Assembly (NCBI RefSeq): GCF_020535545.1
Contig: NZ_CP084752.1
Location: forward strand, 2,693,501 to 2,757,500
DNA length: 64,000 bases
Reading direction: 5' to 3'
DNA from: Roseateles sp. XES5
GTDB lineage: Bacteria > Pseudomonadota > Alphaproteobacteria > Rhizobiales > Rhizobiaceae
Shown here: positions 38,667-55,347 of the stretch, in pieces
Position numbering within the stretch: position 1 is the stretch's first letter
Layout of the letters: each line of letters starts with the position of its first letter
Notes under the pieces: generated by a model
Database searches by the model: none
Told to the model about the DNA's origin: nothing
The model's input: the letters and a program-made list of their open reading frames with translations, nothing else
Program-made: the position numbers and the translations under genes

Positions 38667-39659
38667 TCAGGCGACGGAGATCTGGCGTTTTTCTTCCACG
38701 GACTTCAGAGCCGCATCGGCAAGCGCGAGCGCAGCGAGACCGTCGGTGCCGGAAGGAGACAGGGGCGTGCCTTTTTCGATGGCCGCGATGAAGCTTGCAA
38801 TCTCGTTGGCATAGGCCTCTGTGTAGCGCGTCATGAAGAAATCGTGCAGCGGCGGACGGGTGTAGCCGTCGCCATTGGCGACCTCGATGGAGACGGGGCG
38901 CTGGTTTTCCGCCGAGACCATGCCCTTCGAGCCGTGCACCTCGATACGCTGGTCGTAGCCATAGCTGGCGCGACGGGAATTGGAGATGACGGCCTGCCTG
39001 CCCGACGTCGTCTGGAGAATGACCGAAACGCTGTCGTAGTCGCCGGCCTTGCCGATTTCCGGATCGACCAGCACGGCCGCCGTCGCGAAGACCGAGACGA
39101 CCTCTTCGCCGAGCAGGAAGCGCGCCATGTCGAAGTCATGGATCGTCATGTCGCGGAAGATGCCGCCGGAGCGCTTGATATAGTCGACCGGTGGAGCGCC
39201 GGGATCGCGCGAGGTGATGGTCACCATCTCGACATCGCCGATGCGGCCGTCGTCGATCGCCTTGCGGACGGCCATGAAATGCGGGTCGAAGCGGCGGTTG
39301 AAGCCGACCATCAGCTTGCCCTTGGTTTCGTCCACAACCTGGATGCAGGCCTTCACGCGGTCGATGGCGAGATCGACGGGCTTTTCGCAGAAGATCGCCT
39401 TGCCGGCGCGGGAGAAGCGCTCGATGAGATCGGCATGGGTGTCGGTGGGTGTGCAGATCACGACAGCATCGATGTCGTCGGCGGCTTCGATGGCCTCGAT
39501 GGTGCGGACCGCGCAGCCATATTGTCTGGCAATGGCGTCGGCGGCGGCCGGGAAGGCGTCGGCGACCGCGACGAGCGTGGCGTCCGGGTTGCCAGTCACG
39601 GCCTTGGCGTGGACCTTGCCGATGCGGCCGGCGCCGAGAAGACCAAATCTTACAGTCAT
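38667..39659 (-). CDS. iolG: myo-inositol 2-dehydrogenase
   Basis: The product is 330 residues, the length of rhizobial IdhA/IolG. The Rossmann start MTVRFGLLGAGRIGKVHAKA binds NAD. EKPVDL (about 95-100, catalytic Lys of the Gfo/Idh/MocA family) and GGIFRDMTIHDFDMARFL (Asp and His of the active site) are intact. It oxidises inositol isomers to inososes, the first step of inositol use and also of rhizopine use. A repeat-rich 140-bp gap separates it from the transporter. It is last in a leftward series that starts at the binding protein. Confidence 0.9.
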   Translation of the reverse strand: MTVRFGLLGAGRIGKVHAKAVTGNPDATLVAVADAFPAAADAIARQYGCAVRTIEAIEAADDIDAVVICTPTDTHADLIERFSRAGKAIFCEKPVDLAIDRVKACIQVVDETKGKLMVGFNRRFDPHFMAVRKAIDDGRIGDVEMVTITSRDPGAPPVDYIKRSGGIFRDMTIHDFDMARFLLGEEVVSVFATAAVLVDPEIGKAGDYDSVSVILQTTSGRQAVISNSRRASYGYDQRIEVHGSKGMVSAENQRPVSIEVANGDGYTRPPLHDFFMTRYTEAYANEIASFIAAIEKGTPLSPSGTDGLAALALADAALKSVEEKRQISVA

Positions 39660-39679
39660 GTTGTCCTCGTATGTGGGGA

Positions 39680-39798: not shown

Positions 39799-40818
39799 TT
39801 ACGTCTTGCGCTTCTTCTGCCGGTAGACGTCGACGACCACGGCGGCGACGATGATCACGCCCTTGACGATCTCCTGGTAGAAAGCATCGACGCGCAGGAA
39901 GGTAAAGCCCGAGGTCATGACGCCGAGGATGACGGTGCCGATGACCGTGCCGGTGATGCGCCCGACGCCGCCGGCAAGCGAGGTGCCGCCGATGACGGTC
40001 GCGGCGATGGCGTCGAGTTCGTACATCACGCCCATGCCGGCCTGCGCGGTCTGGGCTCTGGCGGCGGTGACGACGCCGGCAAGGCCCGCAAGAGCGCCGG
40101 CGATGGCATAGACCTTCACCAGATGCGCCTCGACATTGATGCCGGAGACGCGGGCGGCCTGCACATTGGCGCCGATGGCGTAGGTGAACTTGCCGTAGCG
40201 GGTGTAGCGCAAGGCGATGTGGAAGATCACGGCGACGACGAGGAAAATCACCACGGGCCAGATGCCGGTGCCGATGAAGTTGAACTGATCCGTGAGACCC
40301 GAAACCGGCTGGCCCTTCGTGTACCATTTGGAAATGCCGCGGGCGGACACCATCATGCCGAGCGTGGCGATGAAGGGCGGGATTTTCGTTTTGGCGATGA
40401 GCTGGCCGTTGATGAAGCCGGCGAGCAGGCCGACGCCGACGCCGAGCGCGATGGGCACGATGACGGGAAGATCGGTCAGCGAAGGATAGAGCGCGCGCGG
40501 CCAGGTGGAGGCCTGGGCGAGCGAGGCGGTGAACATCGCCGTCATGCCGACGACCGAGCCGGAGGACAGGTCGATGCCTCCGGTGATGATGACCTGCGTG
40601 ACGCCGACGGCGATGATGCCGATGACCGAGACCTGCAGGATGATGATCGTCAGGCGCTGCGGGTTCATCAGGAAGCTCTGGCCGATGAAGATCCAGCCGA
40701 GGATCTCGTAGACCAGCGCGATGCCGACGAGGACGAGAAAGATGTTGAGTTCCGGCGGGAGCCGGCGGGCCGATTTCTGCGCGGCGACCTGGGCCTGCGC
40801 TGCGGAATTCGTGCTCAT
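39799..40818 (-). CDS. inositol-type ABC transporter permease
   Basis: The product is 339 residues with about 9 hydrophobic segments, RbsC/IatP class. Conserved motifs are GGIDLSSGSVVGMTAM (about 128-143), PPFIATLGMMVSARG, and [16 protein letters not shown] (about 275-290). It starts 35 bp after the ATPase stop and belongs to the same leftward operon. Linkage to iolG and an IolR-like site points to myo-inositol or a related inosamine as substrate. Confidence 0.85.
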   Translation of the reverse strand: MSTNSAAQAQVAAQKSARRLPPELNIFLVLVGIALVYEILGWIFIGQSFLMNPQRLTIIILQVSVIGIIAVGVTQVIITGGIDLSSGSVVGMTAMFTASLAQASTWPRALYPSLTDLPVIVPIALGVGVGLLAGFINGQLIAKTKIPPFIATLGMMVSARGISKWYTKGQPVSGLTDQFNFIGTGIWPVVIFLVVAVIFHIALRYTRYGKFTYAIGANVQAARVSGINVEAHLVKVYAIAGALAGLAGVVTAARAQTAQAGMGVMYELDAIAATVIGGTSLAGGVGRITGTVIGTVILGVMTSGFTFLRVDAFYQEIVKGVIIVAAVVVDVYRQKKRKT

Positions 40819-40853
40819 GATTACCTCCCTTGGGCCGCGGACGGCCGTGATCC

Positions 40854-42392
40854 TTACTGGGCAGCCAGTTCCATCACCTTGATCTGCGTGGCGTCCGCGC
40901 GATCGAGGAAGCCGGTGACGCGCCCCTCGTGCATGACCATGATGCGGTCGCTCATGCCGAGCACCTCGGGCATTTCCGACGAGATCATGATGACGGCGAC
41001 GCCGTCGCGGGCGAGTTCGGTGACGAAGCGGTGGATCTCGGCCTTGGCGCCGACATCGATGCCGCGGGTCGGCTCGTCGAGAATGAGGATGCGCGGATGG
41101 GTGAGCAGCCAGCGGCTGATCAGCACCTTCTGCTGGTTGCCGCCCGACAGGTTTTCGATGCGTTCGCCAAGGTTCGGCGTCTTCACGCGCAGCTTGCGGC
41201 TCATTTCCTCGCAGGCCGCCGTCAGCGCGCGCTCGGCGACGAAGCCGTTCTTGACGAACTTGTCCTGCAGAACGGCGATCTGCATGTTTTCCAGGATATC
41301 GAGAACCAGCAGGCAGCCGGTGTCCTTGCGGTCTTCCGTCAGGAAGGCCATGCGGTGCCGGATCGCCGTGTTCGGGCTGTCGATGACAAGGTTCTTGCCG
41401 TTGATCGCGATGGTGCCTGAAGTCGCGGGCGTCACGCCGAAGAGCGTTTCGGCGACGTTCGAGCGGCCCGAGCCGACGAGACCGGCGATGCCGAGGATTT
41501 CCCCGGCGCGCACCTCGAAGGAAACGTCGCGGAAGACGCCCTTGAGGCCGAGGTCCTTCACCGACAGGACGACGTCGCCGATCGGGACCTCTTCCTTGGG
41601 GAACATCTGGGTGATCTCGCGGCCGACCATCATGCGGATGATGTCGTCGCGCGTGACGTCCGAGGAGGCGTGCGTGCCGATATACTTGCCGTCGCGGAAC
41701 ACCGAGAATTCGTCGGCGATCTCGAACAGCTCGTTCATCTTGTGGGTGATGTAGACGATGCCGATGCCCTGCGCGCGCAGGTCCCGGATGATCGTGAAGA
41801 GGTGGTCGACCTCACGTTCGGTCAGCGCCGAAGTCGGCTCGTCCATGATGAGCACGTCGCTCTCGTAGGAAACGGCCTTGGCGATCTCGACCATCTGGCG
41901 GTTGGCGACGGACAGGTCACGCACCTGCGTTTCCGGGTCCATGGCGATGTTGAGGCGCTGGAAAAGCGCGGCGGTCTTGCGGTTCATCTCTCCGTGATCG
42001 ACGAAGCCGAGGCGGGTCTTCGGTTCGCGGCGGATCCAGATGTTTTCCGCGACCGTCATGAAGGGCATCAGGTTGAGCTCCTGATGGATCATGGCGATGC
42101 CATTTTCGAGGGCGTCGAGCGGCGAGTTGAGCCGGATCTTCTGGCCCTTCAGCAGCACGTCGCCCTGGTCCGGCGTGTAGATGCCGGCGAGAATCTTCAT
42201 CAGCGTGGATTTGCCAGCGCCGTTCTCGCCCATCAGGGCGTGCACGGTGCCGCGCTTCAGTCTGAACTGGACGTCGTCGAGTGCGACGACGCCGGGGAAT
42301 TCCTTACGGATACCTTCGGCAGCCAGCAGGAATTCAGCATTCGGAATGGCGCCGCTGGCACGAACCGCGGCCATGGTGGTCGGACTGACCAT
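40854..42392 (-). CDS. inositol-type ABC transporter ATPase (double domain)
   Basis: The start ATG 42392 ([14 protein letters not shown]) follows GGGAGGGAGGG; the longer frame adds nothing convincing. The product is 512 residues with two nucleotide-binding domains. Domain 1 has [23 protein letters not shown] and [11 protein letters not shown]; domain 2 has a degenerate P-loop ([10 protein letters not shown]), [12 protein letters not shown] and [12 protein letters not shown]. This is the IatA/RbsA architecture. It lies 97 bp from the binding-protein stop. It drives import through the 39799 permease. Confidence 0.88.
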
Positions 42393-42488
42393 CGTCCCTC
42401 CCTCCCGGAGCAACCTGAAACGGGCGGACGCGCGCACGCCGGGTGCGCGCGTCCTTCATGGTCTGCTTTCAAGGAACCGGCGTGCCGG

Positions 42489-43418
42489 TCAGTTCTTCGC
42501 CTGGAAGTCGGCCATGTTGGCGGGGGTCACGAGCTGGAAGGGAATGTAGACCTTCGAGTCGACCTTTTCGCCCTTGGCGAGCTTCAGGGCGGCGTCGACC
42601 GAGCCCTTGCCCTGGCCGGCGGCATCCTGGAACACCGTCACGTCTAGTTCGCCGGCGGCCATGGCGGCAAGGCCGTCCTGGGTGGCGTCGATGCCGGCGA
42701 CCACAACCTTGTCCATCGGACGGCCCGCAGCCTTCAGCGCCTGGATCGCGCCGATCGCCATCTCATCGTTGTTGGCGATGATGGCGTCGAATTCCATGCC
42801 GGCGGAGAGCCAGTTGTTCATGAGGTCCTGGCCCTGCGTGCGCTGCCAGTTGGCGGTCTGTTCCTCGACGATTTCGAGGCCCTTGCACTCGTCCGTGGCG
42901 ATGACGTCCTTGACGTCCTGGGTGCGCATGCGCGCAGCCTGGTTGGCAAGTTCGCCCATCATGACGACGACCTTGCCCTTGCCGCCGAGAAGACGGCAGA
43001 CTTCCTTGGTCTGGAGCGTGCCGGAATCCTGCTCGTTCGAGGCGACGAAGGCCTGCTTTTCCGGCAGTTCGTTGACGTTTACCGGCTCGCGGTTGACATA
43101 GACGAGCGGAATGCCGGCATCGGCCGCAAGCTTGGAAAGCGCGGTCGTCGCATCGGTATCGACCGGGTTGACGATGATCGCATCGACGCCGGCGGCGATG
43201 AAGTTCTGGACCTGGCTCTGCTGCTTGGCGACATCGGCCTGGCTGTCTTCGATCTGCAGCTCGACGCCGCTGAGCGTCTTGGCATAGTCGGACATGCCGT
43301 TGCGCAGGACCGTCAGGAAGTTGTCGTCGAAATTCGCCATGGAAACGCCGATCGTCTCGGCATGGGCGGCGGTCGACATCATCACGGCAAGCGCCGCGCT
43401 CACAATCACTTTTTTCAT
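42489..43418 (-). CDS. inositol/rhizopine-type periplasmic binding protein (IbpA/MocB-like)
   Basis: The start is ATG 43418 with GGAGGAG upstream. The product is 309 residues with a signal peptide (MKKVIVSAALAVMMSTAAHA). The mature type I fold shows IGVSMANFDDNFLTVLRNGM, AIIVNPVDTDATTALS, IPLVYVNREP and AIIANNDEMAIGAIQAL. MocB of rhizopine catabolism and IbpA for inositol share this fold, and sequence alone does not separate them here. Context with MocDEF keeps rhizopine possible. The gene follows an IolR-type dyad at 43538-43551. Confidence 0.82.
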   Translation of the reverse strand: MKKVIVSAALAVMMSTAAHAETIGVSMANFDDNFLTVLRNGMSDYAKTLSGVELQIEDSQADVAKQQSQVQNFIAAGVDAIIVNPVDTDATTALSKLAADAGIPLVYVNREPVNVNELPEKQAFVASNEQDSGTLQTKEVCRLLGGKGKVVVMMGELANQAARMRTQDVKDVIATDECKGLEIVEEQTANWQRTQGQDLMNNWLSAGMEFDAIIANNDEMAIGAIQALKAAGRPMDKVVVAGIDATQDGLAAMAAGELDVTVFQDAAGQGKGSVDAALKLAKGEKVDSKVYIPFQLVTPANMADFQAKN

Positions 43419-43508
43419 TGTCGTTCTCCTCCTCGCGCGGTGTCCGGCGGCACCGCAGAATGATCCGGATGACGGGCCCTGCTCCTCCCGGGAGGCAGCG
43501 CCAAAACA

Positions 43509-43551
43509 GAATAAACAAACCGTGAATTTCATATTGCGGAATGTTTATTCC
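43509..43551. promoter_or_regulatory. IolR-type operator (GGAA-N6-TTCC) and flanking repeat
   Basis: GGAATGTTTATTCC at 43538-43551 fits the GGAA-N6-TTCC palindrome described for rhizobial IolR. Its right half TGTTTATTC also pairs with GAATAAACA at about 43509-43517, so a wider inverted repeat is present. The sites are 90-130 bp upstream of the binding-protein ATG. This supports inositol as a signal. The iolR gene is not in the window. Confidence 0.6.
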
Positions 43552-43651: not shown

Positions 43652-44464
43652 TCAGAGGCGTTCGCGCAGGAAAGCGACGCTTTCGGCGACCGCCGCTTTC
43701 GGGTCCGCGACATCATGTACGGCCGGCGAAAAGGGCTCGAAGGACAGCGGGCCGGCATAACCGGTAGCAAGCAATGCCTTGATCTGGCTGACATTTCCAA
43801 GCCGGTCATCAGAGCCTACGAGAACGCGGTGGCCGTCCCGCATGTCGGAAACGGAGACTGCGGGGTCCTCGACGCCAGAAATGTGGACGAGGCCGGTGAG
43901 GTCAGCAAAAAAATCCGGTTCGCCGGCGAGGTGATGGTGGAACGTGTCGTGCACAAGGCGGAATGTCCGTTCCCCTCCGACGGCTTTGATCGCCTCCACC
44001 GCTTCGCGCTTGGAGCGCAGCGAGCAGATCTCGAAGCCGAGCGGCTCGACGAGGCCGATGATGCCGGCGGCATCGAGCAGGGGCTTCAGCGCGGTCAGCG
44101 CCTCGCGGAGGTTCGCCTGTCGCTCGCCATCGGCCCGGCCGGTGCCGTCGTTCTTCGGCACGAGCACCAGCGCGCGGGCGCCGCAGGCGCTGGCGTAGTC
44201 GATCAGTTCTCCCGCCTCGGCCGCGCGGGCGGGCGTCCATTCGTTGAAGCGCTGGAGGGCGTTGATTGAAATGATCGCGACACCATGGCGTTCGGTGAGC
44301 GCCTTCACCTCGGCGGGCGTCGTGCCGTCGAGGATGGCGTTGCCGTCGAGGTCGTTGCGGATTTCGACCGCCGTCATGCCGAGGGAGATTGCGAGGGCGA
44401 AGAAGGCGTCGAGCGTCAGGGCGGGCGCCGTCATGTGGTTGAGGGCGAAAGTCAGGGCGGGCAT
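43652..44464 (-). CDS. TIM-barrel sugar isomerase, MocC/2-keto-myo-inositol isomerase-like
   Basis: The start is ATG 44464 (MPALTFALNHMTAP) with GGAG before it; the longer frame is Arg/Pro-rich and unlikely. The product is 270 residues of the AP-endonuclease-2/xylose-isomerase type barrel. Metal-ligand positions are visible: GLVEPLGFE (Glu), LVHDTFHHHLAG (Asp and His), and LSFEPFSP (Glu). IolI isomerises 2-keto-myo-inositol, and MocC is a similar barrel in rhizopine loci. It probably handles the ketone made by IolG. Confidence 0.8.
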   Translation of the reverse strand: MPALTFALNHMTAPALTLDAFFALAISLGMTAVEIRNDLDGNAILDGTTPAEVKALTERHGVAIISINALQRFNEWTPARAAEAGELIDYASACGARALVLVPKNDGTGRADGERQANLREALTALKPLLDAAGIIGLVEPLGFEICSLRSKREAVEAIKAVGGERTFRLVHDTFHHHLAGEPDFFADLTGLVHISGVEDPAVSVSDMRDGHRVLVGSDDRLGNVSQIKALLATGYAGPLSFEPFSPAVHDVADPKAAVAESVAFLRERL

Positions 44465-44595
44465 GGAATCCTCCGGTCTTCGAGGCCATCGACAGGGCGG
44501 CCTCGCATGCACGCACGAGGATCGGGACAGGCTTGGCGGGCGTCAAAGCCGAAGGTGCTGTCGCGGCATTCATCGCTGAAAGATTGAGAAAGCAT

Positions 44596-44620: not shown

Positions 44621-45652
44621 TCAGATATTCTCCGGCAGGAAGATGTCGAAGGGCAGGAATGTCTGGCCCGGCACGGCGTTCTCGCCCTTCTCGATGGCGG
44701 TCACCATCAGCGAGACGAGTTCACGGCAGAGGGCGGGCAAGGGGGTGCTGATGGCCATTGTGACGACGTCGTCGGCAAGGCCGGCCTTCGATTCTGGGGT
44801 CAGTTCGTTGACGATGAGCTGCACCTTGCCGGCATAGCCTTCCTCGCGGATCGCCGAAATTGCCCCCTCCATGCCGCCGCCGGCGACATAGAGGCCGACG
44901 AGATCGGGATGCTGCGCCAGAAGGTTTGCCGTCGCCTCGTGGGTGATCTCGCTGGTGTCGAGATTGACCAGCGTGTCCAGCACCTCGAAACCCTGGCCCT
45001 TTTCGCGGAAGAAGGAGCGGAAGCCCATCTCGCGCAGCTCGTGGCCGTGAAAGCGGTGGCTGCCGACGAAGATCGCGACCTTTCCGGGGTGCCTTGCGCC
45101 GCGCGCGATCATCCAGGCGGCGGTGCGCCCGACCTTCATGTTGTTGAGGCCGATATAGCCCTGCCGCACGTCCATGGCGAAGTCCGAGAGAAGGCAGAAC
45201 AGCGGGATGCCGCGGGTCTTCAGGTCTTCCACCAGGGTCGTGGTCGCCGGATAGTCCGGCGCGACGACGGCGAGCGCCTGGTTGCGCGCGGAGAGCTGGC
45301 GCAGCATCTCGGCCATCGCCGCCGGTGTCTGCGCATTGATGAACTCGATCTGCGGCACGATGCGCGCCGTGGTGCAGGCATTGCAGGCGATTTCGATCTC
45401 GCGCGCGAAATTCTGGTAGAAGGCCTGGCCCGGGCGCTGGAAGCTGAGGCCCAGCCGGTATTGCGGCAGGTCCTCGAAGACGCGCTGCCGGATGAGGCCG
45501 ATGGCGTGATAGCCGATGGCGTTGGCGGCCTCATAGACCCGACGCGCCGTCTCCTCGCGCACCTTGTGGCGGCCGTTCAGCACGCGGTCGACCGTTGCCA
45601 CGCTGACGCCGGCCGCCCTGGCGAGATCCGAGATGGTGGGTCTCGATGCCAT
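44621..45652 (-). CDS. LacI-family transcriptional regulator
   Basis: The product is 343 residues. The N-terminal helix-turn-helix PTISDLARAAGVSVATVDRVLNG (about 5-27) and hinge are typical LacI; VDRVLNGR replaces the more common VSRVLNN, as in rhizobial sugar regulators. The periplasmic-binding-like sensor domain follows (about 60-340). It is divergent from mocD and upstream of the isomerase, so it likely controls the rhizopine/inositol genes. A loose dyad GAATG-N13-CATTC (45695-45717) lies in the divergent gap. The inducer is not known. Confidence 0.88.
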   Translation of the reverse strand: MASRPTISDLARAAGVSVATVDRVLNGRHKVREETARRVYEAANAIGYHAIGLIRQRVFEDLPQYRLGLSFQRPGQAFYQNFAREIEIACNACTTARIVPQIEFINAQTPAAMAEMLRQLSARNQALAVVAPDYPATTTLVEDLKTRGIPLFCLLSDFAMDVRQGYIGLNNMKVGRTAAWMIARGARHPGKVAIFVGSHRFHGHELREMGFRSFFREKGQGFEVLDTLVNLDTSEITHEATANLLAQHPDLVGLYVAGGGMEGAISAIREEGYAGKVQLIVNELTPESKAGLADDVVTMAISTPLPALCRELVSLMVTAIEKGENAVPGQTFLPFDIFLPENI

Positions 45653-45816
45653 GTTCCCCTCCGTGAAATCTTTCCATCAAGCAAGAATGATAATGAATGA
45701 TGTAATTTGATGCATTCTATCATGGCAGGATTGAGAGACACAAGAAGCGGCGGTATCGTTTGCCCATCAGATGAGGCGGGTCGGTGAGCATGCGCCCCGC
45801 GTGGAGGAGACGAGCG

Positions 45817-46902
45817 ATGAACCCGACGAAGAGGGACTACAGCCTTCTTGGCCGCGATGCCGAGGCGGCCGTTGCCAACGGGCTGGCGGCGGCCGAATGG
45901 TATCATACCGAAATCCCGCGCAAGGACATGAAGGCGCTGATGCAGCGCAGCGATGCGGAGGCCATCCGCGACACCACGATCTGGCTGGGAACCATGCTCG
46001 TCTGCGCCGCCGCAGGCATTTGGTTCTGGGGAACCTGGTGGGCCGTGCCGTTCTTCCTCGTCTACGGCGTGCTCTACGGCTCGGCCTCCGACAGCCGCTG
46101 GCATGAATGCGGCCATGGCACGGCGTTCAAGACAATGTGGATGAACAATGCCTTCTACCAGATCGCTTGCTTCATGATCATGCGCAATCCGGTGACCTGG
46201 CGCTGGAGCCACACGCGCCACCACACGGATACGGTCATCGTCGGCCGCGACCCGGAGATTGCCGTCATGCGCCCGCCGGATCTCCTGCGGCTCGTCCTCA
46301 ATTTCTTCGGCCTGCTCGATGCCTGGCATGCCGTCGTCGATATGGTGCGAAATGCGGCGGGCGTGATGAGCGCGGCGGAAAAGACCTTCGTGCCCGAAAT
46401 GGAACAGCCGAAGGCAATCCGCATCGCCCGCATCTGGCTTGCCATCTACGCCGCGACCATCGCCGCCTGTTTCTACTTCGGCTCCATCCTTCCGGCCATG
46501 CTGATCGGCCTGCCGCGCCTCTACGGCGCTTGGCATCATGTGATGACCGGCTTGCTCCAGCATGGCGGCCTTGCCGACAACGTCGTCGACCATCGGCTCA
46601 ACAGCCGCACGGTCTACATGAACCCCGTCAGCCGCTTCATCTACTGGAACATGAACTACCATGTGGAGCACCATATGTTCCCGATGGTGCCCTATCACGC
46701 GCTGCCGCGTCTGCACGCCATGATCAGACACGATCTGCCGGCGCCGAACCCGTCCATCTGGCACGGCTACAGGGAAATGATCCCGGCCTTCCTGCGGCAG
46801 CTGCGCAACGAGGACTATTTCCTGAAGCGGGAACTGCCGCAGACGGCGCGCCCCTACAAGGAAGAGTTCCACACTGAGACCGCGATTGCGGCCGCCGAAT
46901 AA
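45817..46902 (+). CDS. mocD: MocD-like membrane diiron oxygenase (fatty-acid-desaturase family)
   Basis: The start is ATG 45817 with GAGGAG 8 nt upstream; ATGs before it lack a site. The product is 361 residues. Histidine boxes HECGH (96-100), HTRHH (132-136) and HVEHH (about 281-285) bind two irons, and hydrophobic segments lie at about 55-90 and 205-235. In the moc model of R. leguminosarum, MocD is the oxygenase that removes the O-methyl group of 3-O-methyl-scyllo-inosamine, fed electrons by MocE and MocF. Both partners follow directly, which strongly supports the name. Confidence 0.85.
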   Translation: MNPTKRDYSLLGRDAEAAVANGLAAAEWYHTEIPRKDMKALMQRSDAEAIRDTTIWLGTMLVCAAAGIWFWGTWWAVPFFLVYGVLYGSASDSRWHECGHGTAFKTMWMNNAFYQIACFMIMRNPVTWRWSHTRHHTDTVIVGRDPEIAVMRPPDLLRLVLNFFGLLDAWHAVVDMVRNAAGVMSAAEKTFVPEMEQPKAIRIARIWLAIYAATIAACFYFGSILPAMLIGLPRLYGAWHHVMTGLLQHGGLADNVVDHRLNSRTVYMNPVSRFIYWNMNYHVEHHMFPMVPYHALPRLHAMIRHDLPAPNPSIWHGYREMIPAFLRQLRNEDYFLKRELPQTARPYKEEFHTETAIAAAE

Positions 46903-46925: not shown

Positions 46926-47240
46926 ATGAGCGACAACTGGATCGAGGTCTGCGCGGCGGACGAGATCGACGAGGAGGATGTCATCCGCTTCGACCATGCG
47001 GGCCGCACCTTCGCGATCTACCGCAGCCCGGAAGACACCTACCATGCGACGGACGGGCTCTGCACCCACGAGAAGATCCACCTTTGCGATGGGCTGGTGA
47101 TGGATCACATCATCGAATGTCCCAAGCACAACGGCCGCTTCGACTACAGGTCCGGTGAAGCCAAGGGTGCACCAGTCTGCGTCGACCTCAGGACCTATCC
47201 GGTCAAGGTCGAGGGCGGCACGGTCTTCATCGGGCTCTAG
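46926..47240 (+). CDS. mocE: MocE-type Rieske [2Fe-2S] ferredoxin
   Basis: The product is 104 residues, a complete Rieske ferredoxin. The cluster ligands are C46-T-H48 and C65-P-K-H68 (CTHEKIHLCDG and ECPKHNGRFD). GGAGG precedes the ATG by 7 nt. It passes electrons from the reductase to the MocD oxygenase. It starts 24 bp after mocD, in one operon. Confidence 0.9.
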   Translation: MSDNWIEVCAADEIDEEDVIRFDHAGRTFAIYRSPEDTYHATDGLCTHEKIHLCDGLVMDHIIECPKHNGRFDYRSGEAKGAPVCVDLRTYPVKVEGGTVFIGL

Positions 47241-47307
47241 GGTTTTGTCGCATTATCGACGCCGAAGCGACTTCGCTTCGGCTGGAAATACTCCAGAGGA
47301 AACTGTC

Positions 47308-48531
47308 ATGGCGAATTTCGTTATCGTCGGCGCCGGCGAATGCGGCGCACGCGCGGCCTTCGCGCTGCGCGACAAGGGGTTCGACGGCACGCTGACCCTG
47401 ATCGGCAGTGAGCCCCACCTGCCATACGAGCGTCCGCCGCTTTCCAAGGAGGCGCTGGTTGCCGGCGCTGGCCCGAAATTCGTCGCGGAACCGCAGCGCT
47501 ATGTCGAAGCCGGTATAGACCTGCTGCTGGGCCGCTCGGTCTGCGGGATCGATCGCGCCGCAAAGCGTGTCTCGCTGGGAGACGGCACGGTCGTTCCCTA
47601 TGACAAGCTGCTGCTTGCCACCGGCGCCCGCCCGCGTGCCCTGCCGGGCACGACCTACGGCGGCCGCATCGCGGCGCTGCGCAGCCATGACGATGCCGCC
47701 CGTATTCGCGCGCATCTGATGGACGGCAGCCATGTTGCCATACTGGGCGGAGGGTTCATTGGGCTGGAGCTGGCCGCGAGCGCCCGCAAGCTCGGCGCGA
47801 CCGTCACGCTTATCGAGGGCCTGCCGCGTGTTCTCAGTCGTGGCATTCCGGCGGAGATTGCCGACATCGTCGCGCGCCGGCACGCTGCCGAGGGCGTGGA
47901 AATCCTCTGCGCCGCGAAGGTCGCGCGCATCGAGGAACGGCCGGGCGAAGTGCGCCTTACGCTTGAAGACGGACGTGTCGTAGCTGCCAGCCTGCTCGTC
48001 GTCGGCATCGGCGCGGCGCCGAACACGGAACTGGCGGAAGCGGCTGGCCTTGCCATCGAGAACGGCATTGCCGTCGATGGAATGCTGCGCACCTCCGATC
48101 CGGATATCTTTGCCGCGGGAGACTGCACCTCCTATCCGCTGTCGCTCTATGGCGAGCGCCGCATCCGCCTTGAATCCTGGCGCAACGCGCAGGAACAGGG
48201 AGCGCTCGCAGCGGCCAACATGCTCGGCGGTGCTGATATCCATGCGGCGGTGCCGTGGTTCTGGTCGGATCAGTACGACATGACCTTGCAGATCGCCGGC
48301 CTTGCCGATGGCGCGGCGACAACCGTCCGGCGCGACATGGGCGAGGGGACATTCATCCTCTTCCATCTCGATGCCGCGGGGCAGCTGATCGCCGCAAGCG
48401 GCATCGGGCCGGGCAATGCGGTCGCGCGCGACATCCGCCTTGCCGAAATGCTGATCGCCGCCCGCATCCATCCAGATCCGGCGGAACTCGCCGCACCGGA
48501 AACCAAGCTCAGGAAACTGCTCGCTGCCTGA
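47308..48531 (+). CDS. mocF: MocF-type ferredoxin reductase
   Basis: The start is ATG 47308 (MANFVIVGAGECGARAA) with AGAGGAA upstream; a longer open frame reads through the mocE tail and is not used. The product is 407 residues of the bacterial oxygenase-coupled NAD(P)H-ferredoxin reductase family. FAD motif GAGECGARAA (8-17), NAD motif GGGFIGLELAASA (about 148-160) and IFAAGDCTS (second FAD motif) are present. It reduces MocE. The 67-bp gap to mocE is still operon-like. Confidence 0.88.
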   Translation: MANFVIVGAGECGARAAFALRDKGFDGTLTLIGSEPHLPYERPPLSKEALVAGAGPKFVAEPQRYVEAGIDLLLGRSVCGIDRAAKRVSLGDGTVVPYDKLLLATGARPRALPGTTYGGRIAALRSHDDAARIRAHLMDGSHVAILGGGFIGLELAASARKLGATVTLIEGLPRVLSRGIPAEIADIVARRHAAEGVEILCAAKVARIEERPGEVRLTLEDGRVVAASLLVVGIGAAPNTELAEAAGLAIENGIAVDGMLRTSDPDIFAAGDCTSYPLSLYGERRIRLESWRNAQEQGALAAANMLGGADIHAAVPWFWSDQYDMTLQIAGLADGAATTVRRDMGEGTFILFHLDAAGQLIAASGIGPGNAVARDIRLAEMLIAARIHPDPAELAAPETKLRKLLAA

Positions 48532-48542
48532 GGGAGACCAAC

Positions 48543-49337
48543 GTGAAGACCAAGAGACCGACCGTCGCCGACCTCCAGGCCATGAAGGGCAAGCGCCAAC
48601 TCACCATGCTGCGCGTCGTGACGCTGGATGAGGCGGCAGCCGCCGAACAGGCGAGCATCGACCTCGTTTCCGTGCCGCCCGCCCTGCTGGGGCCGGCCTT
48701 CCGTGAGGCGGCCCCGACGGTCTTCGCCTTCCCTGGCCTCGAATACGGTGATTTCGTCACGACCGACGACTACCTGCGCGGCGCCTTCCAGGCGATGAAG
48801 GCCGGAGGCGATGCGGTCTATTGCGCCGCCGGCCTTTCCACCGTCCGGCGCCTGCGCGAGGAGGGCATTCCGGTGTGTGGCCATGTCGGTCTCATTCCCT
48901 CCAAGGCGACATGGACGGGCGGGTTCCGCGCGGTCGGCAAGACGGCGGAAAGCGCGCTGGAAATCTTCCGGCAGGTCAAGGCGCTCGAAGAGGCGGGGGC
49001 CTTCGCGGCGGAGATCGAGGTTGTGCCCGGCGAAATCGCGGCGGCGATCAGCGCGAGGACCGCGCTCGTCATGCTGTCCATGGGCGCGGGGACGGGGTGC
49101 GACGCGCAATATCTCTTCGCGGACGACGTGCTCGGGCAGAATCGTGGCCATTATCCGCGCCATGCCAAGGTCTACCGCAACTTCGCTGCCGAATATGATC
49201 GGCTCCAGCAGGAGCGCGTCGCCGCCTTCCGCGAATATGCCGATGACGTGCGCTCTGGCGCCTATCCGCAGAAGGGACACCTCGTCGGCATCGAGCCATC
49301 CGAGCTTGCCGCCTTCCTCGATCGGCTCAGCGCTTGA
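48543..49337 (+). CDS. PanB-fold protein without metal ligands
   Basis: The start is GTG 48543 with GAGGGAGA upstream, 11 bp after mocF. The product is 264 residues and aligns by eye to ketopantoate hydroxymethyltransferase along its length: VCGHVGLIPSKATWTGGFRAVGK, ALEEAGAFAAEIEVVP, MGAGTGCDAQYLFADDVLG and HYPRHAKVYRNF. The three Mg2+ ligands of E. coli PanB (D45 in VGDSLG, D84 in ADLPF, E114 in KIEGG) correspond to VSVPPAL, FAFPGL and VYCAAGL, so all seem replaced; the general base E181 is kept in EVVP. A role in ketopantoate synthesis is doubtful. Being last in an O-demethylase operon, it may handle the one-carbon product. Confidence 0.8.
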   Translation: MKTKRPTVADLQAMKGKRQLTMLRVVTLDEAAAAEQASIDLVSVPPALLGPAFREAAPTVFAFPGLEYGDFVTTDDYLRGAFQAMKAGGDAVYCAAGLSTVRRLREEGIPVCGHVGLIPSKATWTGGFRAVGKTAESALEIFRQVKALEEAGAFAAEIEVVPGEIAAAISARTALVMLSMGAGTGCDAQYLFADDVLGQNRGHYPRHAKVYRNFAAEYDRLQQERVAAFREYADDVRSGAYPQKGHLVGIEPSELAAFLDRLSA

Positions 49338-49400: not shown

Positions 49401-49796
49401 ATGAAGTTCATCGACCCAGACCACCCGTTCTACCGCCCGCTCTGGCGGCGGCTGCTTCTGGTCGGGTTCTGTGCCGCATGGACGGCGGTGGAGCTCTATA
49501 ACGGCGAGCAGACCTGGGGCATGATCTTCCTCGTCGTGACCGCCTATGCCTTCGCGAACCTCATCCTCTTCTTCAAGCCTTCCGATCCGGCCGCAAAGCC
49601 GCCGGAAGAGGGGGCGAGCCGAAGAGCTAGGGCATGCCTAGCGCGACAGCCCGAGGCTCTTTTCGACATTGACGCGGCGGATCGTCTCGTCAATCAGCAT
49701 GTTGGCGATCTTCATGCGCAGCGTCGCATTGATGCGCAGATCCTCCGGCGCGCGGTCGGGATGGTTTTCGCGCGCAAAGCTGCGGCGGCGGGCTAG
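49401..49796 (+). CDS. small inner-membrane protein with antisense-overlapping tail
   Basis: The product is 131 residues. The first ~75 (MKFIDPDHPFYRPLWRRLLLVGFC, two hydrophobic segments at about 18-34 and 40-58) are a typical small rhizobial membrane protein. After about residue 78 the sequence becomes Arg/Ala-rich and lies opposite the convergent gene 49638-50135. The tail is probably extension by loss of an earlier stop. GAGGAGA precedes the ATG. Function unknown. Confidence 0.6.
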   Translation: MKFIDPDHPFYRPLWRRLLLVGFCAAWTAVELYNGEQTWGMIFLVVTAYAFANLILFFKPSDPAAKPPEEGASRRARACLARQPEALFDIDAADRLVNQHVGDLHAQRRIDAQILRRAVGMVFARKAAAAG

Positions 49797-50135
49797 AAGG
49801 TTGTCGACGGTTTCCCTGCCGGTAAGGGCGAGATCTTCCGCGACCTCTTCCGGTGCGGTGCGCAGCAGGTGTGGCGGCGGTGCCGGGGGTGCTTCGGGCG
49901 GTGGCTGCGGTTCGGGCGGGCGCGGCTCTTCATAGAGATCGAGATAGGCGGCGGCAGCCTGCGACCCTGATACGAATGCGCCGGTCGTGCCGAGGCCGGT
50001 GAACCCGGAGGTGAGGCCGCGCACCGTGCCGGCGCCGCTCTCTTCCGGTGTCTCCGCGTCAGCCTCCTCGGCCGCTTCGCGCGCTTCCGTCTTCAGGCGC
50101 TCCAGCACGGATTCAAAAACGGTCATGCCGAACAT
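49638..50135 (-). CDS. rhizobial protein with degenerate J-domain C-terminus
   Basis: The product is 165 residues. Residues 1-35 are acidic and helical, about 36-95 is Pro/Gly-rich linker (EEPRPPEPQPPPEAPPAPPP), and the C-terminal 60 residues read like a J-domain fragment: VDNLLARRRSFARENHPDRAPEDLRINATLRMKIANMLIDE (described in parts), with the HPD tripeptide that activates DnaK. Helix I of a normal J-domain is weak. A co-chaperone role is possible; the pattern is short, so caution is needed. Confidence 0.55.
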   Translation of the reverse strand: MFGMTVFESVLERLKTEAREAAEEADAETPEESGAGTVRGLTSGFTGLGTTGAFVSGSQAAAAYLDLYEEPRPPEPQPPPEAPPAPPPHLLRTAPEEVAEDLALTGRETVDNLLARRRSFARENHPDRAPEDLRINATLRMKIANMLIDETIRRVNVEKSLGLSR

Positions 50136-51210: not shown

Positions 51211-51409
51211 CGATTTAGAAGTTCATTGCATTTGACAGTTATGGCAATTCGTACGACGTTGCGCCAATGTGCGCTGGGGTCCTTGGGAGTGGGGACCGGC
51301 GGGCTTGCGCCCGACCAGTCCAGGCCGTCGCCTGATAGCGACCCCGCCCGTGCACAGAACAATGCCTGGCCGCAATTTCGGCCAGTGCGTACAAGGGAGA
51401 GACCTTTCA

Positions 51410-52483
51410 ATGAAAATGATCACTTCGCTTCTCGCCGCCGCCGCCATCAGCGTCGCATCGTTCGTGGCGCCGGCTTTCGCCCAGGATAAGGGCATGGTCG
51501 GCATCTCCATGCCCACCAAGACCTCGACCCGCTGGATTTCCGACGGCGAGACGATGGAAAAGCTGTTCAAGGAAGCCGGCTACACGCCGGACCTGCAGTT
51601 TGCTGACGACGACATCCCGAACCAGCTGGCCCAGATCGAAAACATGGTCACCAAGGGTGCCAAGGTTCTCGTCATCGGCGCCATCGACGGCACGACGCTT
51701 TCCGACATCCTGCAGAAGGCTGCCGATGCCGGCGTGAAGGTCATCGCCTACGACCGCCTCATCCGCGACTCGGGCAACGTCAACTACTACGCCACCTTCG
51801 ACAACTTCCAGGTCGGCGTTCTCCAGGCCACCAGCCTCGTCGACGGCCTGAAGGCGAAGTTCCCGAACACCAAGCCGTGGAACGTCGAGCTCTTCGGCGG
51901 TTCGCCGGACGACAACAACGCCTTCTTCTTCTACGACGGCGCGATGTCGGTCATCCAGCCGCTGATCGACAAGGGTGACATCGTCATCAAGTCGGGCCAG
52001 ACCGGCATGGAAACCGTCGGCACGCTGCGTTGGGACGGTGCCGTCGCCCAGGCGCGCATGGAGAACCTGCTGTCCTCGACCTACACCGATGGCCGCGTCG
52101 ATGGCGTTCTGTCGCCCTATGATGGTCTCTCCATCGGTATCCTGTCGGCCCTGAAGGGCGTCGGCTACGGCTCGGGCGACCAGCCGATGGCGATCGTCAC
52201 CGGCCAGGACGCCGAACTGCCGTCCGTCAAGTCGATCCTCGCCGACGAACAGTATTCGACGATCTTCAAGGACACCCGCGAACTCGCCAAGGTGACCGTC
52301 GGCATGGTCAACTCGATCATGGAAGGCAAGGAGCCGGAAGTGAACGACACGAAGACCTACGACAACGGCGTCAAGGTCGTTCCGTCCTACCTGCTGAAGC
52401 CCGTCGCCGTCGACAAGTCCAGCGCGGAAAAGATCCTCGTTACGGACTCGGCCTACTACACGGCCGACCAGCTGAAGAACTGA
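51410..52483 (+). CDS. chvE: ChvE/Gbp multiple-monosaccharide periplasmic binding protein
   Basis: The product is 357 residues with a signal peptide ([19 protein letters not shown].. AFA, cleaved before QDKG). The mature sequence follows Agrobacterium Chv[81 protein letters not shown] and ATGQDAE-like [11 protein letters not shown]. ChvE binds galactose, arabinose, glucose and related sugars for the Ggu transporter, chemotaxis, and VirA signalling where present. An AGGGAGAG site precedes ATG 51410. GbpR is divergent. Confidence 0.92.
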
Positions 52484-52500
52484 TCGTTCTTCCTTTCCCG

Positions 52501-52525
52501 GGGTTCGCGCCATGTGCGCGAACCC
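52501..52525 (+). terminator. hairpin terminator/attenuator between chvE and gguA
   Basis: GGGTTCGCGC (52501-52510), loop CATGT, and GCGCGAACCC (52516-52525) form a perfect 10-bp stem followed by TCTTTTCT. It lies 18 bp after chvE in a co-directional operon, so partial termination would give more binding protein than transporter. Confidence 0.75.
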
Positions 52526-52603
52526 TCTTTTCTCCGGATCGCAGAGCGAATAGGCTCGGTTACGCCGCTTGAATGACGGCGGCTGGCCGCTGGAAACTGG
52601 TAT

Positions 52604-54139
52604 ATGAGCAAAACCCTTCTGGAAATGCGTGGCATCACGAAGACGTTCCCGGGCGTAAAGGCGCTCGACAACGTCAACCTGAAGGTCCGCGAAGGCGAGA
52701 TCCATGCCCTTGTCGGCGAAAACGGCGCCGGCAAATCCACCCTCATGAAAGTGTTGAGCGGCGTCTATCCGGCCGGCTCCTACGAGGGGGAAATCCATTT
52801 CGACGGCGAGGTCCGCCGCTTCTCGACGATCTCTGACAGCGAGCATCTGGGCATCATCATCATCCACCAGGAGCTGGCGCTGGTGCCGCTTCTGTCGATC
52901 GCGGAAAACATCTTCCTCGGCAACGAGGTCGCGACGAACGGCATCATCGACTGGAAGAAGGCCTTCCGCCTCACCCAGGACCTGCTCGACAAGGTCGGTC
53001 TCAAGGAGCCGCCGGGCACGCTGATCACCGATATCGGCGTGGGCAAGCAGCAGCTCGTCGAAATCGCCAAGGCGCTGTCGAAGAAGGTGCGTCTGCTCAT
53101 CCTCGACGAGCCCACGGCCTCGCTGAACGAAAAGGACTCCGACGCGCTCCTGAAGCTGCTCATGGAGTTCCGTGCGCAGGGCCTGACCTCCATCATCATC
53201 TCGCACAAGCTGAACGAGATCAAAAAGGTCGCCGACCAGATTACCATCCTGCGCGACGGCGGCACGGTCGAGACGCTCGACTGTCACCACGAGGACATTT
53301 CCGAGGACCGCATCATCAAGGGCATGGTCGGCCGCGAGATGGAGGACCGCTATCCGCCGCGCGAGCCGAATGTCGGCGAGACGCTGCTGGAGGTAAAGAA
53401 CTGGAACGTCTTCCACCAGCATCACCGCGACCGGCAGTTCCTGCATGACGTGAACTTCACGGTGCGCGCCGGCGAGGTGGTCGGCATTGCCGGCCTGATG
53501 GGGGCAGGGCGCACCGAGACGGCGATGAGCCTGTTCGGCAAGAGCTGGGGCCACAAGATCACCGGCGACGTCACCATGCGCGGCAAGCCGGTGGACGTCA
53601 GCACGATCCCGAAGGCGATCGAGGCGGGCCTTGCCTATGTCACGGAGGACCGCAAGCAGCTCGGCCTCGTGCTGATCGACAACATCATGCGCAACACGAC
53701 GCTCGCCAATCTCAAGGGCGTTTCCAAGGCGACGGTGATCGACGGTCACCAGGAGGCCAAGGTCGCCTCCGGCTACCGCCAGAAGCTGCGCATCCGCTCG
53801 CACTCGATCTACCAGGAAACGATCAATCTTTCCGGCGGCAACCAGCAGAAGGTCGTGCTGTCGAAGTGGCTGTTCACCAATCCCGAGGTGCTGATCCTCG
53901 ACGAGCCGACGCGCGGCATCGACGTCGGCGCGAAATTTGAAATCTACACGATCATCAACCAGCTTGCCGCCGAGGGCAAGGGCATCCTCATGATCTCGTC
54001 GGAGATGCCGGAACTGCTCGGGACCTGCGATCGCATCTATGTCATGAACGAAGGACGCATCGTGGCCGAGCTTTCAAAGGCGGAAGCAAGCCAGGAATCC
54101 ATCATGCGCGCCATCATGCGCTCCGGGGAGAAACACTAA
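52604..54139 (+). CDS. gguA: GguA sugar ABC transporter ATPase
   Basis: The product is 511 residues with two nucleotide-binding domains. Domain 1 carries [21 protein letters not shown] and [11 protein letters not shown]; domain 2 carries [24 protein letters not shown] and [12 protein letters not shown]. It powers uptake of sugars bound by ChvE. It is 121 bp downstream of chvE after the attenuator-like hairpin. Its TAA overlaps the gguB ATG by one base (TAATG), so the two are coupled. Confidence 0.92.
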
Positions 54140-55347
54140 TGGCCACCGATACCGCGACCAAGACGACCCAGCCTTCGGTGGGGGAATATCTCAAGAAGAA
54201 CATCCGTGAATACGGCCTGCTCGTCGCGCTGGTCGTTATCATGGTCTTCTTCCAGGTCATTACCAACGGCGTGCTCTTCCGCCCGGTCAACATCACCAAC
54301 CTGGTGCTGCAGAACTCGTTCATCGTCATCATGGCGCTGGGCATGCTGCTGATCATCGTGGCGGGGCATATCGACCTTTCGGTCGGCTCCATCGTCGCCT
54401 TCATCGGCGCGATCTCGGCGATCATGCTGGTGAAGTGGGGATTGCCGGCCATCGTCGTCGTGCCGCTCTGCATCCTGGTCGGCGCCGTCATGGGGGCCGC
54501 ACAGGGCTATTGGGTCGCCTACCAGAAAATCCCGTCCTTCATCGTGACGCTCGCCGGCATGCTCGTCTTCCGTGGCATGACCTATGTCGTGCTGTCCGGC
54601 CGCCCGGTCGGTCCGTTCCCGAAGGAATTCCAGATCCTGTCCACGGGCTTCGTGCCGGACTTCCTGTCGATCACCGACCCGGCGACCAGCCTGATCAAGA
54701 ACTATGCCGCGCTCGTCGCCGTGCTGGGGCTTGCCGGCTATGCCATCTATGCGGGCCTGCGCGAGCGCCGCATGAATGCAACGCACGAGACGGAGAACGA
54801 GCCCTTCGCCTTCTTCGCCGTACAGATGGCGATCATCGGCGTCGTCGCGGTCTTCCTCGGCTTCCAGCTCTCCACCTATCGCGGCCTGCCGAACGTGCTC
54901 GTTGTCATGGGCGTTCTGATCGCGCTCTATACGTTCGTCACGACGCGCACGACCATCGGCCGGCGCATCTATGCCATGGGCGGCAACGAGAAGGCGGCGA
55001 AGCTCTCGGGCATCAACACCGAGCGGCTGACCTTCTATACCTTCGTCAACATGGGGGCGCTTGCCGCGCTCGCCGGCATGATCATCGCCGCCCGCCTCAA
55101 CTCGGCGACGCCGAAGGCCGGCGTCGGCTTCGAGCTTGACGTCATCGCGGCCTGCTTCATCGGCGGCGCTTCGGCCTCCGGCGGCGTCGGCAAGATCACC
55201 GGTGCGGTGATCGGCGCCTTCATCATGGGCGTCATGAACAACGGCATGTCGATCATGGGCATCGGCATCGACTACCAGCAGCTCATCAAGGGCTTGGTGC
55301 TGCTCGCCGCCGTGTTCTTCGACGTCTACAACAAGAACAAGGGCTGA
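54139..55347 (+). CDS. gguB: GguB sugar ABC transporter permease
   Basis: The product is 402 residues with 10 or more hydrophobic segments. Permease signatures [16 protein letters not shown] (about 75-90), IPSFIVTLAGMLVFRGM and FIGGASASGGVGKITGA (about 335-351) are intact. The start overlaps the gguA stop. It is the membrane channel of the ChvE-GguAB system. Confidence 0.92.
   Translation: MATDTATKTTQPSVGEYLKKNIREYGLLVALVVIMVFFQVITNGVLFRPVNITNLVLQNSFIVIMALGMLLIIVAGHIDLSVGSIVAFIGAISAIMLVKWGLPAIVVVPLCILVGAVMGAAQGYWVAYQKIPSFIVTLAGMLVFRGMTYVVLSGRPVGPFPKEFQILSTGFVPDFLSITDPATSLIKNYAALVAVLGLAGYAIYAGLRERRMNATHETENEPFAFFAVQMAIIGVVAVFLGFQLSTYRGLPNVLVVMGVLIALYTFVTTRTTIGRRIYAMGGNEKAAKLSGINTERLTFYTFVNMGALAALAGMIIAARLNSATPKAGVGFELDVIAACFIGGASASGGVGKITGAVIGAFIMGVMNNGMSIMGIGIDYQQLIKGLVLLAAVFFDVYNKNKG

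What the first reader, a model, noticed from the sequence alone, without database searches (positions are those of the whole stretch)
48543..49337. PanB homologue that has lost all three Mg2+ ligands, in an O-demethylase operon
By eye the three acidic ligands of PanB (D45, D84, E114) are replaced, yet the barrel, the base E181 and neighbouring motifs are kept. The gene is translated right after MocF. Oxidative O-demethylation yields formaldehyde, and PanB chemistry moves a one-carbon unit between methylene-tetrahydrofolate and a keto acid. A metal-free PanB-fold enzyme could capture the one-carbon unit or act as an aldolase on a keto-inositol. I know of no described function for such a protein.
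Basis: partly seen in the sequence, partly recalled or inferred. Interest (0 to 1): 0.75.

Follow-up and report, generated by a model that had tools for sequence, protein, structure and literature searches.

The report
Possible folate-dependent formaldehyde-capturing enzyme
A bacterial gene related to a vitamin-B5 enzyme has lost that enzyme's metal and substrate sites and travels with oxygenases that probably remove methyl groups, which suggests that it loads the released formaldehyde onto folate, a step so far thought to happen without an enzyme.

Summary
The 264-aa protein at 48543-49337 (+) has the PanB fold but lacks the Mg2+ ligands D45, D84 and E114, and also K112, S46 and about 20 residues after the 'GDS' motif. 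E181 and H136 are kept. It belongs to a clade (56 rows, support 100/100) separate from housekeeping PanB, which this genome encodes elsewhere with all ligands. In 79 of the 80 best-matching loci it follows MocD-MocE-MocF on the same strand. Across the wider clade the partner oxygenase varies, but 29 of 37 non-redundant loci have one within 4 kb, against 0 of 20 housekeeping panB loci. PurU lies directly downstream in 20 of 80 loci, sometimes with FolD. PanC lies near 13 of 20 housekeeping panB genes and in 0 of 80 of these loci. Best reading: after oxidative demethylation of an O-methyl-inositol-like substrate, the protein condenses formaldehyde (or the hemiacetal's CH2OH) with THF to CH2-THF, which FolD and PurU turn into formate. 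Linkage and ligand loss are shown; the activity is inferred. A replacement metal site is not excluded. In the literature searches made, the step HCHO + THF is described as spontaneous.

The parts
48543..49337 (+). PanB-like protein without the PanB Mg2+ ligands ('PanBv'), 264 aa, GTG start
   Evidence: start fits relatives such as one that begins MKSKRPTV
48531..48536 (+). AGGGAG, likely ribosome-binding site of PanBv, overlapping the MocF stop codon
   Evidence: sequence, (inference)
47305..48531 (+). MocF-like ferredoxin reductase (FAD, PF07992 + PF14759)
   Evidence: anthranilate dioxygenase reductase model 375.4 bits, below its cut-off of 650
46926..47240 (+). MocE family Rieske ferredoxin
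   Evidence: TIGR02377 175.4 bits, cut-off 136.15
45784..46902 (+). MocD-like membrane di-iron oxygenase (FA_desaturase family)
   Evidence: PF00487 126.5 bits; oxygenase role inferred
44621..45652 (-). LacI-family regulator, divergent to mocD
   Evidence: homologues beside mocDEF described in PMC3538637 (passages)
43652..44512 (-). Xylose-isomerase-like TIM barrel protein
   Evidence: PF01261 104 bits
42489..43532 (-). Sugar ABC transporter substrate-binding protein
   Evidence: no equivalog cut-off reached
40854..42437 (-). Sugar ABC transporter ATPase
   Evidence: no equivalog cut-off reached among the 25 models shown
39805..40853 (-). Sugar ABC transporter permease (ends approximate, from tblastn)
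   Evidence: 63% identity to the R. rosettiformans permease
38667..39674 (-). Inositol 2-dehydrogenase IolG
   Evidence: TIGR04380 429 bits, cut-off 355

Best explanation
PanBv is a PanB-derived hydroxymethyltransferase that kept the folate/C1 half of the PanB reaction and lost the keto-acid half. The neighbouring oxygenase (MocD with MocE and MocF; elsewhere FA-hydroxylase or PhyH types) hydroxylates the O-methyl group of an inositol-like substrate. PanBv then condenses the released formaldehyde, or the -O-CH2OH group before it falls off, with tetrahydrofolate to give 5,10-methylene-THF. FolD oxidises this to 10-formyl-THF and PurU hydrolyses that to formate and THF. Transporter, TIM-barrel protein and IolG handle the demethylated polyol. 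Shown: the gene order, the ligand and keto-acid-site loss, the conserved remainder, the linkage to oxygenase-family genes and to PurU/FolD. Inferred: the demethylation, the use of THF, the catalysis, the substrate.
For: D84, E114 and K112 (which positions the keto acid in PanB; recalled) are gone, whereas H136 and E181 stay. PanBv is one clade, 100/100, apart from PanB, and is accessory: 15 of 21 genomes of the genus (own included) have it, all 21 have a weaker PanB-type match. mocDEF lies upstream in 79 of 80 rows; PurU directly downstream in 20 of 80; FolD near in 4 of 80. Different layouts keep the link: PanBv-folD-purU-iolG in Neotabrizicola; folD-purU at the far end of the divergent arm in R. 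rosettiformans; PurU directly downstream in L089, after IolG in L187, divergent in L065. A gene of one of four oxygenase types lies within 4 kb in 29 of 37 non-redundant loci, 21 of 29 after dropping rows that supplied an oxygenase query, against 0 of 20 panB loci. PanC is near 13 of 20 panB genes, in 0 of 80 PanBv loci. Precedent: the pAO1 purU-mabO-folD demethylation operon (PMC6214936 and PMC3891541, passages). The genome has no Fae.
Against: No biochemistry. PurU is near only 4 of the 37 non-redundant rows and is not found in the window; this genome's purU-folD pair is on another contig. FolD lies 2.5 kb from 1 of 20 classical panB genes too. The genome has three glutathione-dependent formaldehyde dehydrogenases, so another route exists. 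HCHO + THF also proceeds without an enzyme. 8 of 37 loci show no oxygenase within 4 kb (L123 has a TRAP transporter). The MIOX-like match in L134 is just under Pfam's cut-off (23.8 vs 25). That MocDEF removes the methyl group is recalled, not tested.
Confidence: 0.52

Rival explanations
1. PanBv acts on the polyol, not on the C1 unit: an aldolase or retro-aldolase (or isomerase) on a keto-inositol or keto-sugar made by IolG, working without metal or with a new site.
For: IolG and xylose-isomerase-like TIM proteins are recurrent neighbours; PanB itself is an aldolase-type enzyme.
Against: Keto-acid residues K112, S46, D84 are lost. Members in L124, L172, L173, L175, L184 and L185 have an oxygenase-family gene but no IolG within 4 kb, and IolG is within 4 kb in 6 of 37 rows. 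PurU/FolD linkage is unexplained.
Confidence: 0.13
2. PanBv uses a different metal: H114, E157, E159 and H207 bind a metal ion that activates formaldehyde or the hemiacetal; the reaction is the same hydroxymethyl transfer to THF, so only 'metal-free' is wrong.
For: H114, E157, H207 are invariant in 361 of 361 proteins and E159 in 359. E157 and H207 are V179 and F229 in E. coli PanB.
Against: No coordinates could be measured. E at the E157 column also occurs in the third PF02548 type (10 of 10). The same residues may serve acid-base chemistry or folate binding.
Confidence: 0.15
3. PanBv is not an enzyme but a folate- or formaldehyde-binding helper, or a structural partner of the oxygenase.
For: Catalytic metal ligands are lost, as in pseudoenzymes.
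Against: A set of residues (H114, W124, E157, E159, D187, D195, H207) is kept in nearly all members down to about 35% identity. The partner oxygenase changes family, which fits a shared product better than a fixed protein partner.
Confidence: 0.12
4. PanBv is a second, ordinary ketopantoate hydroxymethyltransferase for pantothenate.
For: PF02548 match; named public records call it 3-methyl-2-oxobutanoate hydroxymethyltransferase.
Against: Ligands lost, NCBIfam panB cut-off missed, no panC in 80 loci, intact panB elsewhere.
Confidence: 0.02

Closest known systems
PanB, ketopantoate hydroxymethyltransferase (EC 2.1.2.11, PF02548)
   Different: Mg2+ ligands, K112, S46 and about 20 residues after GDS lost; E157, W124, H207, R225 (nearly) invariant instead; mocDEF and purU neighbours instead of panC
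Fae, formaldehyde-activating enzyme (PF08714)
   Same: Proposed job: condense formaldehyde with a pterin C1 carrier
   Different: Different Pfam family (only PF02548 found); carrier here would be THF, not tetrahydromethanopterin; Fae absent from this genome
Rhizobial moc (rhizopine) locus, mocDEF with LacI (FixV-like) and TIM-barrel gene
   Same: MocE family hit, mocD-E-F order, divergent LacI and TIM gene, as described in PMC3538637 (passages); LacI-mocD-mocE-mocF neighbours SM_b20817-20820 in PMC11387232 (passage)
   Different: PanBv and PurU do not appear in PMC3538637 ('panB', 'hydroxymethyltransferase', 'purU', 'formaldehyde', 'tetrahydrofolate': 0 occurrences in the main text); rhizopine-binding protein model not met
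pAO1 purU-mabO-folD operon (N-demethylation of methylaminobutyrate)
   Same: Demethylation operon that carries folD and purU to process CH2-THF (passages)
   Different: There the FAD-dependent oxidase MABO itself yields CH2-THF; here a PanB-fold protein would load THF after a separate oxygenase

Membership tests
PanB (EC 2.1.2.11) | PF02548 over gathering score | tested here: met
   143.4 vs 28.7 bits
PanB (EC 2.1.2.11) | NCBIfam TIGR00222 panB equivalog cut-off | tested here: not met
   111.3 vs 207.55 bits
PanB (EC 2.1.2.11) | Mg2+ ligands D45, D84, E114 | tested here: not met
PanB (EC 2.1.2.11) | K112 and S46 (keto-acid site; role recalled) | tested here: not met
   Y93 and A47 in the window protein
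PanB (EC 2.1.2.11) | E181 catalytic residue | tested here: met
   E159; 107 of 107, 359 of 361
PanB (EC 2.1.2.11) | Phylogenetic place among PanB | tested here: not met
   separate clade 100/100
PanB (EC 2.1.2.11) | Makes ketopantoate | not testable with these tools
   needs complementation or assay
Fae (PF08714) | Fae domain | tested here: not met
   only PF02548 found in the protein at E 0.001
moc (rhizopine) catabolic locus | mocD-mocE-mocF with MocE-family ferredoxin | tested here: met
moc (rhizopine) catabolic locus | Rhizopine-binding protein model NF052284 | tested here: not met
   49.3 vs 420 bits for 42489-43532
moc (rhizopine) catabolic locus | Substrate is rhizopine or another O-methyl-inositol | not testable with these tools
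   inferred from IolG, TIM and transporter neighbours

The most novel reading that the evidence does not exclude
PanBv is the first enzyme family that catalyses formaldehyde (or methoxy-hemiacetal) + THF to 5,10-methylene-THF, a folate counterpart of Fae. It arose from PanB by losing the keto-acid half-site and is used by many Alphaproteobacteria behind several unrelated demethylating oxygenases.
Probability: 0.42. Interest if true: 0.86.

Novelty: new variant of a known kind. Interest (0 to 1): 0.73.

Why it matters
Condensation of formaldehyde with THF is described as spontaneous (review PMC8879981, passages) and as too slow for growth: He et al. [quoted passage not shown] PanBv is a concrete candidate with a ready test. 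It would explain how bacteria that oxidatively demethylate polyols handle the toxic C1 product, correct the 'pantothenate synthesis' label that public records give these proteins, and supply a part for synthetic C1 assimilation.

Tried and rejected
Ordinary PanB isozyme: rejected on ligands, tree, NCBIfam cut-off and absence of panC. Ligands shifted to nearby positions: not found; the best nearby acid (E67) is E in 114 and D in 7 of 361. Decayed gene or artefact: rejected, found in three capped lists of 120 proteins each with the same residues kept. Specific rhizopine substrate: not supported by NF052284; substrate left open. Measuring distances in the model: not possible, no coordinates were laid in the box. 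Literature: ten searches; I saw listings with the start of abstracts, and passages of eight papers (PMC11387232, PMC6214936, PMC3891541, PMC7073904, PMC4814558, PMC10107442, PMC3538637, PMC8879981). Neither the listings nor the passages name a PanB relative as a formaldehyde-THF enzyme. That such an enzyme is not in print rests on these searches of open-licence papers only.

Weak points: the oxygenase queries came partly from PanBv loci, so I give the count with and without those rows. The 80 loci are the best 80 of at least 544, all at 73% identity or more, and most are related Rhizobiaceae, which inflates the mocDEF and PurU counts; some loci are cut short, which lowers the PurU count. D at the D45 column in 115 of 361 proteins goes against 'all three ligands lost' as a family trait. 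L081's ORF came out short (123 aa) in my extraction and was dropped; the counts are on the window plus 79 of the 80 loci, and on all 80.

Full report
What is there. The ORF at 48543-49337 (+) encodes 264 aa. It lies 11 nt behind MocF, with AGGGAG overlapping the MocF stop codon. Upstream on the same strand are MocD (FA_desaturase family), MocE (TIGR02377, 175.4 vs 136.15 bits) and MocF. Divergent from mocD run a LacI regulator, a xylose-isomerase-like TIM protein, a sugar ABC transporter and IolG (TIGR04380, 429 vs 355 bits). The window lies in a genome of 5.8 Mb; the best named matches to this protein are from Shinella.

It is a separate family. In a tree of 79 rows the 56 PanBv rows form one side of a branch with support 100/100. 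On the other side are 13 classical PanB rows and 10 rows of a third type (D45, S46, K112 kept; D84 C or S; E114 Q). The genome has its own panB with all ligands and panC beside it. In the genus, 15 of 21 genomes (own included) have a PanBv-strength match and all 21 a weaker PanB-type match, as expected of an accessory catabolic gene. Named public records call it 3-methyl-2-oxobutanoate hydroxymethyltransferase.

Its company. Of the best 80 loci (of at least 544 found), 79 have MocD, MocE and MocF upstream; counted on the window plus 79 loci, 79 of 80 on the same strand. PurU is directly downstream on the same strand, under 400 nt away, in 20 of 80; FolD is near in 4 of 80. Other layouts carry the same genes: PanBv-folD-purU-iolG on a Neotabrizicola plasmid; folD-purU at the end of the divergent arm in R. 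rosettiformans; PurU divergent to PanBv in L065, directly downstream in L089, behind IolG in L187. Over 37 loci below 80% identity, a gene of the FA_desaturase (22), FA_hydroxylase (5), PhyH (5) or MIOX-like (1) type lies within 4 kb in 29. After dropping the 8 rows that had supplied an oxygenase query it is 21 of 29; in 20 classical panB loci 0 (Fisher p 2.6e-9 and 1.3e-7, phylogeny not corrected). In those 20 control loci PurU was found in 0 and FolD in 1. Pfam confirmed PhyH in L175 and L185, FA_hydroxylase in L134 and FA_desaturase in L172; the MIOX match of L134 is just under its cut-off. PanC is found in 13 of 20 classical loci and in 0 of 80 PanBv loci.

Reading. The constant next to changing oxygenases is PanBv; what such oxygenases share, if they remove methyl groups, is formaldehyde. 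PurU and FolD suggest that the carrier is THF. PanB normally moves the CH2 of CH2-THF to a metal-bound keto acid. PanBv has lost the metal and keto-acid residues but not E181 and H136. The simplest enzyme left over is one that loads formaldehyde, or the hydroxymethyl ether before it falls apart, onto THF. Folate-linked disposal in a demethylation operon has a precedent on pAO1: purU-mabO-folD (PMC6214936 and PMC3891541, passages). He et al. 2020 (PMC7073904, passages) argue that the uncatalysed reaction is too slow to matter and could not exclude an unknown enzyme; a 2022 review (PMC8879981, passages) also calls the step spontaneous. PanB has been argued to cleave CH2-THF in a side reaction (PMC4814558, passages).

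Limits. MocDEF as an O-demethylase of rhizopine is recalled from the older literature; the passages I read say only that mocDEF or the mocD operon is required for or involved in rhizopine catabolism and that the mocD promoter is rhizopine-inducible (PMC10107442, PMC3538637). PurU is not linked in the window, and this genome's purU-folD pair lies on another contig. Three glutathione-dependent formaldehyde dehydrogenases exist here. In the 37 non-redundant rows PurU is near in 4 only, and 8 rows have no oxygenase-family gene within 4 kb. 'Metal-free' is unproven. The substrate is inferred.

Verdict. Observation confirmed, with the qualification about D45 in a distant subclade. Interpretation partly supported: the one-carbon half is now the leading explanation, the keto-inositol aldolase a weaker rival. 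The finding is a new variant of the PanB kind with a testable and potentially important function.

Noticed in passing
L163, L166-L171, L189-L191: A third PF02548 type keeps D45, S46 and K112 but has C or S for D84 and Q for E114; 10 rows, on the PanB side of the tree; L190 has a DctP transporter gene and a GntR regulator beside it, L191 a GntR regulator. Function unknown.
   Followed up: partly
L174, L175, L176 (one unnamed 1.6-Mb genome): Five matches to a PanBv query in one small genome; the four fetched are PanBv, two in tandem, near FA_desaturase, FA_hydroxylase, PhyH or GH4 genes.
   Followed up: partly
L065: PanBv 76% identical to the window's, in a contig labelled beta-proteobacterium MAG, divergent from PurU and without mocDEF in 14.8 kb; horizontal transfer or misbinning.
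   Followed up: no
window 51407-55347: A second sugar ABC transporter set (binding protein, ATPase, permease) downstream, behind a divergent LysR gene.
   Followed up: no
window 49638-50135 (-): 165-aa ORF found in the Shinella loci and one Rhizobium locus (L021, 48%) but in none of the other loci; not scanned for families.
   Followed up: no
L122, L184: Distant PanBv members beside a rearranged MocD-MocF-MocE set (L122) or a PhyH-like gene (L184).
   Followed up: partly
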